64,000 nt of DNA from Prescottella equi (GTDB lineage: Bacteria > Actinomycetota > Actinomycetes > Mycobacteriales > Mycobacteriaceae). A program made the position numbers and the translations under genes. Location: assembly GCF_020171745.1 (NCBI RefSeq), contig NZ_JAIVAH010000017.1, positions 186,001-250,000 of the forward strand, in the 5' to 3' direction. The first letter of the stretch is position 1, and every line of letters starts with the position of its first letter. This document shows, piece by piece, positions 3,077 to 64,000 of this stretch. Under the pieces are notes generated by a model that saw only the letters and a list, made by a program, of their open reading frames with translations, was not told the origin of the DNA and did no database searches.

Positions 3077-3361
3077 TCAGTGGCCCAGTTGATCGGTGAG
3101 CGAGACGTTGTCCAGCCGCTTGATTCGTCGATGCTCGGCCAACACCAGAACGGTCCCCACCACTAGAGCGCAGCCACAGACGATGCCCGCGATCCACGCC
3201 CAGCCGGCGAAGCCGTAGCCCGCGGCGACGAGCGTGAGGCCCAGCGTGACGATTGCGACACCGATCAGGGCATACCCAGGCCAGTTACGCGTGTCCTCGA
3301 TGGCTTCGCCGGGATGTTCCCGGGTCGTGTGCGCCAGGTCGCGAGGGTCTTTGCTGTTCAT
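3077..3361 (-). CDS. usfY: UsfY-like small membrane protein
   Basis: 94 residues. The motif order HTTREHPGEAIEDTRNWPGY, two hydrophobic segments (about 31-50 and 54-75), then AEHRRIKRL matches mycobacterial UsfY, the gene found beside rsbW/usfX-sigF. The ATG at 3361 has GGGGAGG seven nt upstream; longer in-frame starts lack this and would add an arginine-rich leader. It sits in the same minus-strand stress island as sigF but about 2.2 kb from it. Two transmembrane helices with both ends on the same side are inferred. The function of UsfY is not known. Confidence 0.7.
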   Translation of the reverse strand: MNSKDPRDLAHTTREHPGEAIEDTRNWPGYALIGVAIVTLGLTLVAAGYGFAGWAWIAGIVCGCALVVGTVLVLAEHRRIKRLDNVSLTDQLGH

Positions 3362-3735
3362 TCGAACCTCCCCGGTTTCGAATCGGAGGCTCCGCACGGG
3401 AATGGACCCGTGCGGTCCTTGCGTGTGTCCTAGATTGTCGTCCGCCTCCGGTGTTCCTGCACGGCACCGTTCCGGCCGAGCACCTCCGGTTCGACAGACC
3501 TGTCCACGCGACGAGGCGCCGCGGGCCTGCGGCACCCGTCACTGCGGCAACCGTGTCGGCGTCCAGAAGGTCACGATGTTCGTCGACCATGAGCCCTTGC
3601 GACTCGGCGGAGTGTGTCGCTATCGTGGGGCGCGGTTGAACAAACAGCCGATGCTGGAAGCGCCGCTCGCGTCGGCTTCGTAATCCGTTCTCATTCACAC
3701 GGGAACGCGTCGACAGCGAGATCACCCATCTTCCG

Positions 3736-30460: not shown

Positions 30461-30499
30461 AGTGATCAGGGTCACTGTTGTTTGGTGAGCTGGGTCACA
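30461..30499. promoter_or_regulatory. two CRP-like sites upstream of rpf
   Basis: AGTGA-N6-TCACT (30461-30476) and GGTGA-N6-TCACA (30484-30499) fit the TGTGA-N6-TCACA consensus of mycobacterial CRP (Rv3676) with one mismatch per half at most. They lie 308-346 bp before the rpf start. rpfA is a known Rv3676 target in M. tuberculosis. Confidence 0.5.
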
Positions 30500-58792: not shown

Positions 58793-61750
58793 GTGGCGGA
58801 TCGCCTGATCGTGCAAGGTGCGCGTGAGCACAATCTGCGAGGGATCAATCTCGATCTGCCCCGGGACAGCCTGATCGTCTTCACCGGGCTGTCCGGCTCC
58901 GGCAAGTCCAGTCTCGCGTTCGACACCATCTTCGCGGAAGGACAGCGGCGCTACGTCGAATCGCTGTCGGCGTACGCGCGCCAGTTCCTGGGGCAGATGG
59001 ACAAGCCGGACGTCGACTTCATCGAGGGCCTGTCGCCCGCGGTGTCGATCGACCAGAAGTCCACCAACCGCAACCCACGCTCGACCGTGGGCACCATCAC
59101 CGAGGTGTACGACTACCTGCGTCTGCTGTATGCGCGGGCCGGCAGCGCGCATTGCCCGGTGTGTGGCGAGCCGATCGCGCGGCAGACGCCGCAGCAGATC
59201 GTCGACCAGGTGCTCGAGATGGAGGAGGGGACCAAGTTTCAGGTCCTCGCCCCGGTGGTCCGGACCCGCAAGGGCGAGTTCGTCGATCTGTTCGAGCAGC
59301 TCAACACGCAGGGCTACTCGCGTGTGCGCGTCGACGGTGTGATCCATCAGCTCACCGATCCGCCCAAGCTCAAAAAGCAGGAGAAGCACGACATCGAGGT
59401 TGTCGTCGACCGCCTCACCGTCAAGGCGAGCGCGAAGCAGCGGCTCACCGACTCCGTCGAGACGGCCCTGCGCCTGGCCGACGGAATCGTCGTGCTCGAC
59501 TTCGTCGACCGGGACGAGGATGCTCCCGATCGCGAGCGGCGGTTCTCGGAGAAGCTCGCGTGCCCCAACGCACACCCGCTGTCGATCGACGACCTCGAGC
59601 CGCGCTCGTTCTCGTTCAACTCGCCGTACGGCGCCTGCCCCGAATGCACCGGCCTCGGCATCCGCAAGGAGGTCGACCCCGACCTCGTCGTGCCGGATCC
59701 GGAGCTGACGCTCGAGGACGGTGCCATCGCCCCGTGGTCGATGGGCCAGAGCTCGGAGTACTTCGGCCGCCTGCTGTCGGGTCTCGGCGACATCATGGGC
59801 TTCGACATGGCCACTCCGTGGAACAAGCTGCCGGCCAAGGCGCGCCGAGCGATCCTCGAGGGCAGCACCGAGCAGGTGCACGTCAAGTACAAGAACCGCT
59901 ACGGGCGCACGCGCTCGTACTACGCCGAGTTCGAGGGCGTAATGCCGTTCCTGCACCGTCGGCTCGAGCAGACCGAGTCCGAGCAGATGAAGGAACGCTA
60001 CGACGGGTACATGCGCGACATCCCGTGTCCCGCATGTGACGGCGCCCGCCTGCGCCCGGAGATCCTGTCGGTCACCATCTCGTCCGAGACCTACGGCAAG
60101 AAGTCGATCGCGCAGGTCTGTGAACTCTCCATCGCCGACTGCTCGGCGTTCCTGAACAGCCTCACCCTGGGCGCTCGCGAGGAAGCGATCGCCGGCCAGG
60201 TCCTCAAGGAGGTGCAGGCGCGTCTCGGGTTCCTGCTGGACGTCGGTCTCGAGTACCTGTCGTTGGCGCGTGCCGCGGGCACGCTGTCCGGCGGTGAGGC
60301 GCAGCGCATCCGACTCGCCACCCAGATCGGTTCCGGGCTCGTCGGCGTTCTGTACGTGCTCGACGAGCCGTCCATCGGCCTGCATCAGCGCGACAACCGC
60401 CGACTCATCGAAACCCTGAGCCGACTGCGGGATCTCGGCAACACGCTGATCGTCGTCGAGCACGACGAGGACACCATCCGGACGTCGGACTGGGTCGTCG
60501 ACATCGGCCCGCTCGCCGGCGAGCACGGGGGCCGCGTGGTGCACAGCGGCACGTACAAGGAGTTGCTCGACAACACCGAGTCCCTGACGGGCGCCTACCT
60601 GTCGGGCCGCAGCGTCATCGAGGTGCCGGCCGAGCGGCGTGCGGTGGACCGCAAGCGGCAGATCACCGTCGTCGGGGCGCGGGAGAACAACCTCGCGGGT
60701 ATCGATGTGAGCTTCCCGCTCGGGGTCCTCACCTCGGTCACCGGCGTGTCCGGCTCCGGCAAGTCGACGCTGGTCAACGACATCCTGGCCACCGTGATGG
60801 CGAACAAGCTCAACGGCGCTCGGCAGGTGCCCGGCCGGCACACTCGGATCAACGGCCTCGACCAACTCGACAAGCTGGTGCAGGTCGACCAGTCGCCGAT
60901 CGGCCGAACCCCGCGATCGAATGCCGCCACCTATACCGGCGTCTTCGACAAGATCCGGACGCTGTTCGCCGCCACCACCGAGGCCAAGGTGCGTGGTTAC
61001 CAGCCCGGGCGGTTCTCGTTCAACGTCAAGGGCGGCCGGTGCGAGGCGTGCTCCGGCGACGGCACCCTGAAGATCGAGATGAACTTCCTGCCCGACGTCT
61101 ACGTCCCGTGCGAGGTCTGCCACGGAGCCCGCTACAACCGCGAGACGCTCGAGGTGCACTACAAGGGCAAGACCATCGCCGAGGTGCTGGACATGCCGAT
61201 CGAGGAGGCCGCGGAGTTCTTCGAGCCGGTCACCTCGATCCACCGGTACCTCAAGACGCTCGTCGAGGTCGGGCTCGGGTATGTCCGGCTGGGTCAACCG
61301 GCGCCGACCCTCTCCGGTGGCGAGGCGCAGCGCGTCAAGCTGGCGGCGGAACTGCAGAAGCGGTCCACCGGGCGCACTGTCTACGTTCTCGACGAGCCCA
61401 CCACCGGCCTGCACTTCGAGGACATCCGGAAGCTCCTCAAGGTCGTCAACGGTCTCGTCGAGAAGGGCAACACCGTGATCGTCATCGAGCACAACCTCGA
61501 TGTCATCAAGACGTCCGACTGGATCATCGATATGGGGCCCGAGGGCGGGTCGGGCGGCGGCACGGTGGTCGCCGAGGGAACTCCGGAGGATGTCGCGGCC
61601 GTTCCGGGCAGCTACACCGGACGCTTCCTGGGTGAAGTTCTGTCGGCGCCGTCGGCGGCATCCAACGGTGCCGCGCCCCGGAAGTCCGCCGCGGGCAAGT
61701 CGAATGCCGCGCCGCGGAAGCGAGCGCGAAAGGCCGCAGCGGTCGGGTAG
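58793..61750 (+). CDS. uvrA: excinuclease ABC subunit A
   Basis: 985 residues, two tandem ABC ATPases with Zn modules. Walker [15 protein letters not shown] and [13 protein letters not shown]; Zn fingers CPVCGEP, C-x2-C in [10 protein letters not shown] and the damage-binding [14 protein letters not shown] / [14 protein letters not shown]; signatures LSGGEAQRI and [15 protein letters not shown]. The C-terminal 35 residues are Ala/Lys/Arg-rich ([20 protein letters not shown]). GTG at 58793 with AAGGGAA upstream; the much longer frame that precedes it is not coding. Confidence 0.97.
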
Positions 61751-61778
61751 CCGCAGCCATCGAGCTTCGACCAAGCGA

Positions 61779-61812
61779 ACGGCGGTGGGAAACCGAGGTT
61801 TCCCACCGCCGT
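61779..61812. terminator. bidirectional hairpin of uvrA and small gene A
   Basis: 16-bp perfect complementarity (61779-61794 with 61797-61812), apical bases forming the loop, midway between the uvrA stop and the convergent 40-residue gene stop. Confidence 0.75.
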
Positions 61813-61832
61813 CAAGCTGTCAGCGGACCGAC

Positions 61833-61955
61833 TCAGACCGGCTGCTGCTGCTCGGACGAGCCGCCGAGCAGGCCGCCCAGCAGTGCGGTGATGTCGAGGT
61901 CTCCGCTGCTGAGAGCGCTGATCAGGCCGGGGAGGATTTCGGTGATCGATCCCAT
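61833..61955 (-). CDS. 40-residue amphipathic small protein (paralogue A)
   Basis: The protein starts MGSITEILPGLISALSSGDL, continues DITALLGGLLGG and ends SSEQQQPV. GAAGGAGA lies six nt before the ATG, and a 16-bp hairpin follows the stop. No signal peptide; two short helices with leucines on one face, separated by GDLD, and a polar Gln tail. It is 63% identical over 38 residues to the 43-residue protein at 62754-62885. Size and character resemble the small signal-less PorA/PorH porins of Corynebacterium, but there is no clear sequence match. Function unknown. Confidence 0.8.
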   Translation of the reverse strand: MGSITEILPGLISALSSGDLDITALLGGLLGGSSEQQQPV

Positions 61956-62008
61956 GTTTCTCTCCTTCGATTCGGACCTTCGGGGGGAAGGGCCCGGTGG
62001 GGGTATGC

Positions 62009-62052
62009 GTGATCTGGATCACTTCCTGATCACGCGACGGTCACGCTACCAA
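62009..62052 (-). promoter_or_regulatory. promoter/operator of small gene A
   Basis: Minus strand: TTGGTAGCGT (62043-62052; likely -10 TAGCGT), then the palindrome GTGATCCAGATCAC (62009-62022). The elements TTGGTAGCGT, TCGCGTGAT, TCACGCA and CCCCCACC recur in the same order upstream of small gene B. Gene A has an extra 11 bp between the first GTGAT and the palindrome. Confidence 0.6.
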
Positions 62053-62203
62053 CACGGCGGCCCGATTCGGGGCGGTTTTCGCGAACTTGTTTTTCGTAAG
62101 CGAAGAGGCGGGTCTGTGCAGGCCAGGCCCAAATCGGACAACTGTCCAAATAGTGCCTGGTAGCGGCGTCGCGGGCCCGAGGCTCGCGGGTTGTGGCGGA
62201 AGC

Positions 62204-62626
62204 TCAGAAGTGGTCGAGCCGCCGGGCGGCGGTCACGGATCGTCCGATCAGTTCGACGAGGGTCGCCTCGTCGACGAGCGCGAGTCTGGTGATGTACAGG
62301 CAGCCCTTGCCGAGCCTGTGTGGCCCGAGTCTGTCGAGCTCCTCGGATAGTTCGTCGCACTCGAGGGTGAGGTAGAGGCTCAGGGCGGTCGCTCTGGGGG
62401 AGTAGCCGACGAGTGGGGTCTCGCCGGTCCGCCCACTGGCGTACCGGTAGGTGCGGGAACCGAAGCCCACGATGCTCGTTCCCCACATCACGGCGGGTTC
62501 GCCGGACTCGTCTTCCATGATCGATCGAAGGCGCCGAGCGTCTGCCCGGCGGGTCGGATTCGGAAGATTCTCGATGAACGCGTCGACGCTCGAATCGGTT
62601 GCGTGTGTCTTGTTCGCGGCGGCCAT
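62204..62626 (-). CDS. DUF1801 (YdhG-like) protein
   Basis: 140 residues. DUF1801 motifs: SSVDAFIENLPNPTRRADAR, VMWGTSIVGFGSRTYRYASG, TPLVGYSPRATALSLYLTLE and GKGCLYITRLALVDEATL. Small iron-chaperone/frataxin-like fold in relatives; role unclear. ATG at 62626. It separates the two small-protein paralogues and is on the same strand. Confidence 0.88.
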   Translation of the reverse strand: MAAANKTHATDSSVDAFIENLPNPTRRADARRLRSIMEDESGEPAVMWGTSIVGFGSRTYRYASGRTGETPLVGYSPRATALSLYLTLECDELSEELDRLGPHRLGKGCLYITRLALVDEATLVELIGRSVTAARRLDHF

Positions 62627-62700
62627 GGGTGGAGGTTAGGCCGGGCGTGCCGAGGATGGTGCGCCGACGCCGCGCGCTTGCCCTGGAACGGGTCGGGAAA

Positions 62701-62738
62701 AAGAAAACGGCGGCGGAGGCTGAACGCCTCCGCCGCCG
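62701..62738 (-). terminator. strong intrinsic terminator of small gene B
   Basis: Perfect 13-bp stem (62708-62720 with 62726-62738), 5-nt loop; on the minus strand it is followed by TTTTCTTTTT. It lies 16 bp beyond the gene B stop. Confidence 0.93.
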
Positions 62739-62753
62739 GAAAGTTCCGGGACC

Positions 62754-62885
62754 TTACTGGCCGGTGCCGCCCTGCTGCTGCTCTGCAGAGCCGGCGAGCA
62801 GCTGGGTGAGCAGCCCGGTGATGTCGATGTCACCGTTGGTGATGGCGCCGAGCAGGCCGCTGAAGATTTCGCCGATCGATCCCAT
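62754..62885 (-). CDS. 43-residue amphipathic small protein (paralogue B)
   Basis: The protein starts MGSIGEIFSGLLGAITNGDI, continues DITGLLTQLLAG and ends SAEQQQGGTGQ. AAGGAGA lies four nt before the ATG, and a strong intrinsic terminator follows. Shares MGSI, EI, GL, GD, DIT, LL and EQQQ positions with paralogue A. Like A it lacks a signal peptide and has a hydrophobic face but no full transmembrane span. Signals for transcription end and translation start are among the best in the window, so high expression is inferred. Function unknown. Confidence 0.82.
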   Translation of the reverse strand: MGSIGEIFSGLLGAITNGDIDITGLLTQLLAGSAEQQQGGTGQ

Positions 62886-62935
62886 TCGTTCTCCTTAGGT
62901 CGTCCTCGGGCGAGGACTTTTGGTGGGGGAGTTGC

Positions 62936-62968
62936 GTGACCTGAATCACGCGAAGGGGACGCTACCAA
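62936..62968 (-). promoter_or_regulatory. promoter/operator of small gene B
   Basis: Minus strand: TTGGTAGCGT (62959-62968), then GTGATTCAGGTCAC (62936-62949), part of a GCGTGA-N6-TCACGC palindrome of CRP/GlxR type. Paralogous with the region upstream of small gene A. Confidence 0.6.
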
Positions 62969-63029
62969 TGGGGCAGGCGTGACGGAAGGGAAATCGGTGT
63001 ATCTGTTTGCCGGGTTTGTACCGCCGTGG

Positions 63030-63407
63030 TCAGTAGACCGGGCCGGTGTACTTCTCGCCGGGGCCCTTGCCCGGCTCGTCGGGGTGGGCGGAGGTCTCGC
63101 GGAAGGCGCGCTGCAGTGCCTGGAGACCCTCGCGGATCGGCCCGGCGTGCGGTCCGAGGTACTCGACGGAGGCGGTGACCAGGCCGGCGAGCGCGGTGAT
63201 CACACGTCGCGCCTCGTCCAGGTCCAGGTTCGGGCTGTTCTCGGGGTTCTCGTCGGACAGGCCCAGCTTCTCGGCCGCCGAGCTCATGAGCATGACGGCG
63301 GCGCGGCTGATCACCTCGATGGCGGGTACATCGGCGAGATCGCGGATGTCGTCGAGATCGTCCTCGGCATGCTGAACGGCTTCGGCCGGGTCGGGGTTCT
63401 GCGTCAT
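63030..63407 (-). CDS. DUF1844 protein
   Basis: 125 residues. DUF1844 core: DLADVPAIEVISRAAVMLMS, AEKLGLSDENP, LDLDEARRVITALAGLVTAS, then REGLQALQRAF and a disordered Pro/Gly tail. Helical, cytoplasmic; found divergent from infC in many actinobacteria. ATG at 63407, the only start that gives the family N-terminus. Function unknown. Confidence 0.88.
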   Translation of the reverse strand: MTQNPDPAEAVQHAEDDLDDIRDLADVPAIEVISRAAVMLMSSAAEKLGLSDENPENSPNLDLDEARRVITALAGLVTASVEYLGPHAGPIREGLQALQRAFRETSAHPDEPGKGPGEKYTGPVY

Positions 63408-63493
63408 GCTGTCAGGATCCCACCCGCGATCGCGTCCGGGGGCGGCCGGGTGGTGGGCTCCGCGGTCGATTCGATTCCCGACATGGGAGGTGT

Positions 63494-63499
63494 TAGGCT
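63494..63499 (+). promoter_or_regulatory. candidate -10 of the infC operon
   Basis: TAGGCT; a poor -35 (TCGATT) lies 17 bp upstream. Placed between the divergent DUF1844 gene and infC. Confidence 0.5.
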
Positions 63500-63690
63500 G
63501 TGCGTCACGACCGCCCTCGGCTCCGGCCAGGGCAGCAAAGTGGAGTCCGACTCCCACCTCTGCGCGGCACCCATGGTGCAGTTCAGTGGTCCGGTCGCCG
63601 AACGGCAGCAATGCCGGTCGGCTCCTTCAGTGAAGCGAAGGGATGCATGGTCCGATTTTTCGGATCCGGCATCGCACCGGTCGACATCGG

Positions 63691-63732
63691 GCCCCGCACG
63701 ACGTTCACACGTCGACGCGGGGCTTTCTTGTT
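63691..63732 (+). terminator. attenuator-like terminator in the infC leader
   Basis: Stem of two perfect blocks: GCCCCGC (63691-63697) with GCGGGGC (63717-63723) and CGACG (63699-63703) with CGTCG (63710-63714), followed by TTTCTTGTT. It lies 65 bp before the infC start, inside the leader, so readthrough is required for infC expression. Confidence 0.75.
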
Positions 63733-63796
63733 GGGGTAGAGGGCGCACGGGCTGCGGCGCGGTCAACGGACTGCACCGCACTACCTAGGAGGCCCC

Positions 63797-64000
<204 letters not shown>

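What the first reader, a model, noticed from the sequence alone, without database searches (positions are those of the whole stretch)
61833..62968. Pair of undescribed 40/43-residue amphipathic proteins, each an independent, well-signalled gene
Two paralogues (24 of 38 aligned residues identical) flank a DUF1801 gene. Each has an excellent ribosome site and a hairpin after the stop (B has a T-rich intrinsic terminator), and their upstream regions are homologous, so the whole promoter-gene unit was duplicated. They lack signal peptides and full TM spans but have leucine-rich amphipathic helices and a conserved EQQQ near the C-terminus. This resembles the tiny signal-less outer-membrane porins PorA/PorH of Corynebacterium; the resemblance is in size and character, not in alignable sequence. 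Alternatives: membrane-active toxins, regulators of membrane complexes, or secreted peptides.
Basis: partly seen in the sequence, partly recalled or inferred. Interest (0 to 1): 0.82.

Follow-up and report, generated by a model that had tools for sequence, protein, structure and literature searches.

The report
Tiny outer-membrane-type proteins beside uvrA
Two real 40- and 43-residue genes in a Prescottella (Rhodococcus equi group) genome look like members of a widespread, apparently undescribed class of tiny 'MGS' proteins, some of which sit next to the enzyme type that glues mycolic acids onto proteins, so they are probably lipid-anchored outer-membrane proteins rather than toxins.

Summary
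Confirmed: A (61833-61955, -) and B (62754-62885, -) are genuine paralogous genes (24/38 identical). A orthologues show pN/pS 0.03-0.15. The promoter/operator unit occurs exactly twice in the 5.5-Mb genome, before A and before B. The locus (DUF1844 gene to uvrA) holds 1-4 such units in 12 of 14 Prescottella genomes (P. equi included); the peptides turn over into at least six types under one conserved leader; two genomes have none. DUF1801 is a bystander (absent between B and A in P. equi). New: similar tiny proteins (about 29-52 aa, mostly M-G-S start, no signal peptide) occur in other genera of the family. One sub-type, also present elsewhere in the window's own genome, lies beside a Cmt1-like protein in 27 of 29 places found; Cmt1 is the Corynebacterium protein O-mycoloyltransferase. 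Best reading: tiny, signal-less, probably O-mycoloylated mycomembrane proteins that work like ProtX/PorA/PorH, but are not members of the PorA/PorH families as modelled by NCBIfam. Pore formation and mycoloylation are inferred. The link of A/B to Cmt1 is at class level only: no Cmt1 gene lies at the 14 uvrA loci, nor at five other tiny-gene loci checked.

The parts
61833..61955 (-). tiny gene A, 40 aa, MGSITEILPGLISALSSGDLDITALLGGLLGGSSEQQQPV
   Evidence: orthologues in 2 close species, pN/pS 0.03-0.15
61962..61968 (-). ribosome site GAAGGAG of A
61778..61813 (-). 16-bp hairpin after A, no T-run; lies between the convergent A and uvrA
   Evidence: z -6.6
62009..62022 (-). GTGATCCAGATCAC palindrome (GTGA-N6-TCAC) before A
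62043..62052 (-). TTGGTAGCGT, proposed extended -10 (TGnTAnnnT) of A
   Evidence: role inferred, no sigma-70 consensus promoter found
62754..62885 (-). tiny gene B, 43 aa, MGSIGEIFSGLLGAITNGDIDITGLLTQLLAGSAEQQQGGTGQ
   Evidence: AF2: helices 4-16 and 22-39, pLDDT 80.5
62891..62896 (-). ribosome site AAGGAG of B
62708..62738 (-). intrinsic terminator of B
62936..62949 (-). GTGATTCAGGTCAC palindrome before B
62959..62968 (-). TTGGTAGCGT, proposed extended -10 of B
   Evidence: role inferred
62204..62626 (-). DUF1801 gene between A and B; bystander
   Evidence: PF08818 36.4 bits; not between B and A in P. equi
63030..63407 (-). DUF1844 gene, upstream border of the locus in all 14 genus genomes searched
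   Evidence: start codon chosen by eye

Best explanation
A and B are members of a class of tiny (about 29-52 aa), mostly acidic, signal-less proteins, usually starting M-G-S, of Prescottella and related genera. Each is made from its own monocistronic unit: extended -10 box, GTGA-N6-TCAC operator near the start of the transcript, strong RBS, hairpin/terminator. The product folds as two short helices around a GD-[IL]-D-[IL]-T turn. I propose that it crosses the inner membrane without a signal peptide, as PorA, PorH and ProtX do; is O-mycoloylated on Ser/Thr in a Gly/Ala/Ser-rich stretch (for example GGSS/AGSA before EQQQ) by a Cmt1-type mycoloyltransferase encoded elsewhere in the same genome; and sits in the mycomembrane as a lipid-anchored oligomer (pore or surface protein). 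The array at the uvrA locus gains, loses and swaps units quickly, as expected of surface-exposed proteins under phage or environmental pressure. SHOWN: real coding genes, unit structure, turnover, similar tiny genes in several genera, linkage of one sub-type to Cmt1-like genes. INFERRED: that A/B share the fate of the Cmt1-linked proteins, export, mycoloylation, location. SPECULATIVE: pore activity, phage-driven turnover.
For: Purifying selection on A, absent in the shifted frames of the two A pairs so tested. Units in 12 of 14 genus genomes, 23 units; -10 box or a near variant in 20 of 23, operator >=7/8 in 19 of 23 (one of them, L040, out of register), against 2.1% of shuffled upstreams. Box plus operator exactly twice in the own genome. 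Tiny MGS ORFs in other genera: 9 of the 21 out-of-genus loci translated; one more (L148, 37 aa) behind an operator. One sub-type found in 27 of 201 genomes, with a Cmt1-like gene beside it in 27 of 29 places, against 0 of 14 uvrA loci and 0 of 44 unrelated loci. The neighbour enzyme's best solved match is Cmt1 (own genome E 1e-61; next Protein PS1 1e-45, Ag85 about 1e-24). The own genome's Cmt1 locus has four tiny genes and probably a fifth (63-80 aa). A profile of the A/B type prefers the true sequences: 41 of 74 distinct tiny peptides are equalled by at most 5 of 100 tail-shuffled decoys. Literature passages: Cmt1 is the only known protein mycoloyltransferase, sites are Ser/Thr among Ser, Gly and Ala, orthologues exist in Nocardia and Rhodococcus (PMC11066868); ProtX is a tiny (3874 Da) protein mycoloylated on Ser37 (PMC5310785); [quoted passage not shown]
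Against: No Cmt1-like gene at the 14 uvrA loci, anywhere in the window, or at the five other tiny-gene loci checked (g6 twice, g4, g27, g23): the linkage holds for one sub-type. The Cmt1-linked units mostly lack the GTGA-N6-TCAC operator. A/B match neither PorA nor PorH models. Amphipathic moments are unremarkable against shuffles. Tail shuffling also destroys helix periodicity, so one search shows shared pattern, not proven homology; 33 of 74 fail it. Starts and composition were partly selected for by the searches (asked for ATGGG; one search kept only MG.., M[GAS]S.., Mx[GAS]S starts and at most three R/H/C/W), so MGS and Cys-free frequencies are biased upward. Selection on B (pN/pS 0.13-0.59) and type 4 (0.36-0.90, few changes) is weaker. 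All 14 genus genomes have MspA porins. No expression or protein data.
Confidence: 0.6

Rival explanations
1. Tiny cytoplasmic-side lipid-binding proteins (e.g. lipid-droplet or acyltransferase cofactors): most Cmt1 loci also carry a WS/DGAT wax-ester/triacylglycerol synthase gene, and amphipathic helices without signal peptides suit droplet surfaces.
For: WS/DGAT-like gene present in 20 of 24 loci examined (20 of 23 Cmt1 loci); no signal peptide by eye.
Against: Missing from three Cmt1 loci that keep the tiny pair and the enzyme (L200-L202); the Cmt1-like neighbours begin with signal-peptide-like sequences by eye, i.e. act outside the cytoplasm.
Confidence: 0.15
2. Small regulators of envelope enzymes (activators or chaperones of mycoloyltransferases) rather than substrates.
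For: Same genomic linkage; size typical of small regulatory membrane proteins.
Against: Up to six dissimilar tiny genes around one or two such enzymes and separate, fast-turning-over arrays with no such enzyme near suit many substrates better than one regulator.
Confidence: 0.12
3. Secreted membrane-active peptides or bacteriocins, or membrane toxins of toxin-antitoxin pairs.
For: Size, hydrophobicity, duplication and diversification.
Against: Net negative charge (-4 each), no partner or immunity gene seen beside each unit, no Rfam match in 61500-64000, linkage of a related sub-type to a mycoloyltransferase-like gene, no hit for B in 50,697 phage records or for the type-4 peptide in 72,556 plasmid records.
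Confidence: 0.08

Closest known systems
ProtX of Corynebacterium glutamicum (cg2875)
   Same: Tiny (3874 Da), signal-less, start M-T-S-V-F (deduced from the S3A primer printed in PMC5310785), mycoloylated on Ser37, dependent on mytC; required for phage Cog adsorption (PMC9671496).
   Different: Mycoloylation of A/B untested; full ProtX sequence not compared; start M-G-S instead of M-T-S; no array of ProtX paralogues mentioned in the passages I saw.
PorA / PorH porins (NCBIfam NF033925, NF033938, NF033937); PorACj 40 aa, PorACur 37 aa
   Same: Size, no signal peptide, helical prediction, tandem tiny genes between fixed neighbours (PMC5944148 passages).
   Different: No match of A/B to NCBIfam at E <= 10; different locus (between groEL2 and PKK2 genes in Corynebacterium); pore activity unknown here.
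Cmt1/MytC protein O-mycoloyltransferase (PDB 4H18, 8QHF)
   Same: The enzyme beside one sub-type of the class is closest to Cmt1 among solved structures (E 1e-67, 2e-56, own genome 1e-61).
   Different: Here it stands in a cluster with tiny genes and usually WS/DGAT; its activity is not shown.
MspA-type porins (PF09203)
   Same: Present in all 14 genus genomes searched.
   Different: 179-position family; A and B match no Pfam family.

Membership tests
PorA family porin (NF033925) | match to the curated profile | tested here: not met
   A and B: 0 NCBIfam families up to E = 10; the model itself is live, PorA as I recall it scores 83.5 bits
PorH family porin (NF033938/NF033937) | match to the curated profile | tested here: not met
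   PorH as I recall it scores 39.5 bits on NF033938
PorA/PorH/ProtX-like tiny mycomembrane proteins (functional kind) | tiny, no signal peptide, helical | tested here: met
   40/43 aa; no signal peptide by eye, no predictor run; AF2 two helices, pLDDT 80.5, for B
PorA/PorH/ProtX-like tiny mycomembrane proteins (functional kind) | O-mycoloylated on Ser | not testable with these tools
   candidate sites only; sub-type linkage to Cmt1-like genes
PorA/PorH/ProtX-like tiny mycomembrane proteins (functional kind) | located in the mycomembrane / forms channels | not testable with these tools
   needs fractionation and bilayer assays
Cmt1-linked tiny class | M-G-S start, about 29-52 aa, no Cys, Gly/Ser/Leu-rich | tested here: met
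   A and B by sequence; 74 distinct comparison peptides all Cys-free, 54 net negative, but the collecting scan favoured such peptides
Cmt1-linked tiny class | Cmt1-like gene next door | tested here: not met
   0 of 14 uvrA loci; the same genome has such a locus elsewhere
Cmt1-linked tiny class | detectable sequence relation to the A/B-type profile | tested here: inconclusive
   41 of 74 peptides equalled by at most 5/100 tail-shuffled decoys, 33 of 74 not that distinct

The most novel reading that the evidence does not exclude
An undescribed superfamily of tiny, signal-less MGS proteins, encoded in large, rapidly rearranging sets (two loci and at least six, probably seven, genes in this genome), is a main protein O-mycoloylation clientele of Prescottella and several related genera, served by a clustered Cmt1-type enzyme. 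Protein mycoloylation and tiny helical mycomembrane proteins would then be a general mycolata trait outside Corynebacterium.
Probability: 0.45. Interest if true: 0.87.

Novelty: new variant of a known kind. Interest (0 to 1): 0.74.

Why it matters
[quoted passage not shown] glutamicum (PMC11066868, passage). These genes give concrete candidate substrates with a clustered candidate enzyme in several other genera, and in P. equi. They also give a natural array for asking how tiny signal-less proteins cross a membrane and why their sequences turn over so fast.

Tried and rejected
Family membership in PorA/PorH: rejected by profile. Pfam: none for A/B at E <= 10. Rfam: nothing in 61500-64000 at E <= 1. 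Phage carriage (B) and plasmid carriage (type-4 peptide): none. MspA absence as a reason to need tiny porins: rejected, 14 of 14 genomes have MspA. Operator as a class-wide mark: rejected; it holds for most Prescottella uvrA units and for one gene of the g6 pair and the g4 gene, not for most Cmt1-linked units. The leader RNA of A and B does not fold better than chance (z -1.8, -1.5). Hits discarded after reading: L113, L114 (transcription-factor-like ORFs); L147 (277-aa dehydrogenase-like ORF); L013 (long repeat ORF); of the 8 out-of-genus genomes only the two at E about 1e-5 were read, six at E 0.03-0.09 were not. L185 and L187 (weak or partial, no Cmt1) are kept as the misses in 27 of 29. 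Of 39 places, 30 had loci and were translated; 9 were not; L116 (51 aa) was judged unlike. From the tiny-ORF lists I dropped three ORFs by eye (two in L158, one minus-strand in L188). The genome contigs pattern scan gave 44 stretches; beyond names and the Cmt1 control those outside the genus were not studied. Genus handles g4-g28 are unnamed; I name none of them. Papers: R. equi channel paper PMC154412 not held; that R. equi has cation- and anion-selective channels I know only from passages citing it. Nine paper searches were run; I saw no description of this class in their listings or in the passages I read of seven papers. No whole paper was read, and the library lacks most subscription papers.

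Full report
WHAT IS THERE. A (61833-61955, minus, 40 aa) and B (62754-62885, minus, 43 aa) are as described. They are 63% identical over 38 residues. Each is a separate unit: TTGGTAGCGT, a GTGA-N6-TCAC palindrome, AAGGAG-type RBS, ATG, stop, strong hairpin. B's hairpin is followed by a T-run; A's is not. TTGGTAGCGT occurs twice in the window against 0.02 expected. The palindrome alone is not rare (4 against 1.1 expected). Box plus palindrome occurs exactly twice in the 5.49-Mb genome, with a reversed-pattern control of 0. No sigma-70 consensus promoter was found; reading TTGnTAnCGT as an extended -10 is my inference.

ARE THEY GENES? A orthologues in two related species differ by 5-12 synonymous changes over about 31 sites but only 1-3 non-synonymous changes over about 86 sites (pN/pS 0.03-0.15). 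In the four A and B pairs also read in the two other frames, the synonymous excess is lost. B is more relaxed (0.13-0.59 over the pairs compared), type 4 more so (0.36-0.90, few changes), type 2 is 0.17, and A against B is 0.97, i.e. fast divergence after duplication.

GENUS AND LOCUS. Contig lengths and titles place the relatives in Prescottella: G004 contig C14 (64,667 bp) equals P. equi DSM 20307 NZ_LWTX01000014.1; G002 and G003 match P. defluvii records and G006 Rhodococcus sp. OK519. A single-sequence search with B finds matches in 7 of 14 genus genomes at E <= 0.1, and in 251 family genomes in no other genus at E <= 0.01. A mixed profile finds 12 of 14. In all 14 genomes the locus is bordered by the DUF1844 gene and the convergent uvrA end. 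Between them lie 23 units in 12 genomes (1-4 each); two genomes have only 42 and 81 bp and no unit. One of the 23 (L031, position 3193) has the leader but an 81-aa ORF. Peptides fall into at least six types under one leader: A/B type; MGSLGDILGDFDIKALLEKLL; MGSLLSIAKLLGFDPKEA; MGSLYAVLDALQPQIHVLLGS; MLGSPEMPELSAFD; and a type with LDLGSL repeats. The box or a near variant is present in 20 of 23 and the operator (>=7 of 8 fixed bases) in 19 of 23, one of these (L040) out of register. The operator starts 19-20 nt after the start of the box, 30 nt in the three A units. Shuffled upstreams reach >=7/8 in 2.1%. These units are related by descent, so this is conservation, not 23 independent events. 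DUF1801 lies between B and A in two genomes but not in P. equi.

BEYOND THE GENUS. Type-4 peptides occur in two genomes of another genus at a different locus, and type-3-like peptides at a second locus in two Prescottella genomes (L109, L110). A pattern for RBS plus ATGGGATC matched 36 of 401 family genomes at 39 places, of which 30 had loci. All 9 in-genus loci and 9 of 21 out-of-genus loci translated to 29-43-aa MGS proteins; the rest were longer, unlike or trivial ORFs. The g6 and g4 genes found this way, without using the operator, carry a perfect GTGA-N6-TCAC site 43-55 nt before the ATG in the three loci scored; the partner gene of the g6 pair does not. An operator-plus-RBS pattern over 397 order genomes gave own A and B, one tiny MGS protein (L148, 37 aa) and one 277-aa ORF. 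None of the 317 genomes outside the family matched; that sample held no other Prescottella.

THE KEY LINK. Reading around those hits showed tiny MGS genes, often in pairs, upstream of an esterase-fold protein with a signal-peptide-like start. It is PF00756. Its best solved match is Cmt1 of C. glutamicum (E 1e-67, 2e-56 and, in the own genome, 1e-61), then Protein PS1 (about 1e-42 to 1e-45), then Antigen 85 (7e-33 to 8e-25). A profile of that tiny sub-type finds 29 places in 27 of 201 genomes. In 27 of 29 places the Cmt1-like gene is within the fetched DNA (25 of 27 without the two loci that supplied queries; two places of G127 share a stretch). Controls: 0 of 14 uvrA loci, 0 of 44 unrelated loci; also 0 of 5 other tiny-gene loci (g6 twice, g4, g27, g23), which is against a class-wide rule. 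These loci are homologous to each other, so the count shows conserved linkage across genera, not independent events. In 20 wider stretches all 20 have the enzyme, and up to six tiny genes surround it. That scan kept only starts such as MGS, MSS and MAS with few R/H/C/W, so MGS and Cys-free frequencies are biased upward. A WS/DGAT gene is present in 20 of 24 loci. The window's own genome has such a locus on contig 3 (L188): uppS, hlyIII, WS/DGAT, tiny genes, Cmt1-like, tiny genes, contig end. It has four tiny genes and probably a fifth of 63-80 aa; with A and B that makes six or seven in two places.

IS A/B PART OF THAT CLASS? Shared: length, MGS start, no Cys, Gly/Ser/Leu-rich, acidic (54 of 74 comparison peptides are net negative). 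An A/B-type profile ranks 41 of 74 distinct tiny peptides so that at most 5 of 100 tail-shuffled decoys score as well; 33 are not that distinct. AlphaFold gives B two helices (4-16, 22-39; pLDDT 80.5) and the Cmt1-linked sub-type two helices with low confidence (69). So class membership is likely but not proven, and A/B are not themselves next to a Cmt1 gene.

MECHANISM. In C. glutamicum Cmt1 is the only known protein mycoloyltransferase; modified sites are Ser/Thr among Ser, Gly and Ala without a strict motif; Cmt1 orthologues exist in Nocardia and Rhodococcus (PMC11066868, passages). [quoted passage not shown] ProtX is a phage adsorption factor (PMC9671496, passages) and is mycoloylated at Ser37 (PMC5310785, passages). 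By analogy A/B would be exported, mycoloylated and embedded in the mycomembrane. I put 0.6 on that and about 0.3 on actual pores. Regulation by a CRP/GlxR-type protein is suggested by the GTGA-N6-TCAC site (consensus recalled) but untested.

AGAINST. No Cmt1 gene at the uvrA locus or at five other tiny-gene loci; no PorA/PorH match; amphipathic moments of A and B not better than shuffles (p 0.10 each); MspA porins in all 14 genomes; no expression data; lipid-droplet or regulator roles remain open.

Noticed in passing
L188 (own genome contig 3, 99500-105969): A WS/DGAT acyltransferase, several tiny MGS-type genes and a Cmt1-like mycoloyltransferase form a cluster near uppS and hlyIII; WS/DGAT is present in 20 of 24 comparable loci.
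   Followed up: partly
L151 about 3228-3650 and L152 about 3110-3530, reverse-complemented in L151 (genus g6): A pair of tiny MGS proteins (37 and 29 aa) just upstream of an alpha/beta hydrolase gene; these loci give no match to the Cmt1-like queries. Could be another lipid-modifying partner.
   Followed up: no
L013 (genome G009, contig 1, 602263-605364): An open frame of about 1200 residues with LDLGSL / ALGSLGLP-like repeats, resembling the LDLGSL repeats of the type-6 tiny proteins.
   Followed up: no
window 30462-30498: Two GTGA-N6-TCAC sites 23 bp apart, the only others in the window.
   Followed up: no
window about 63500-63740: Leader upstream of the next plus-strand gene (infC by position, recalled synteny) with, by eye, a GC-rich hairpin and a T-rich tail; no Rfam match at E <= 1; possible attenuator.
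   Followed up: no
L193-L195, also L197-L199, L201, L202: Two Cmt1-like matches in tandem near the tiny genes; in L195 and L202 one of them gives several separate matches, perhaps a broken or misassembled copy.
   Followed up: no
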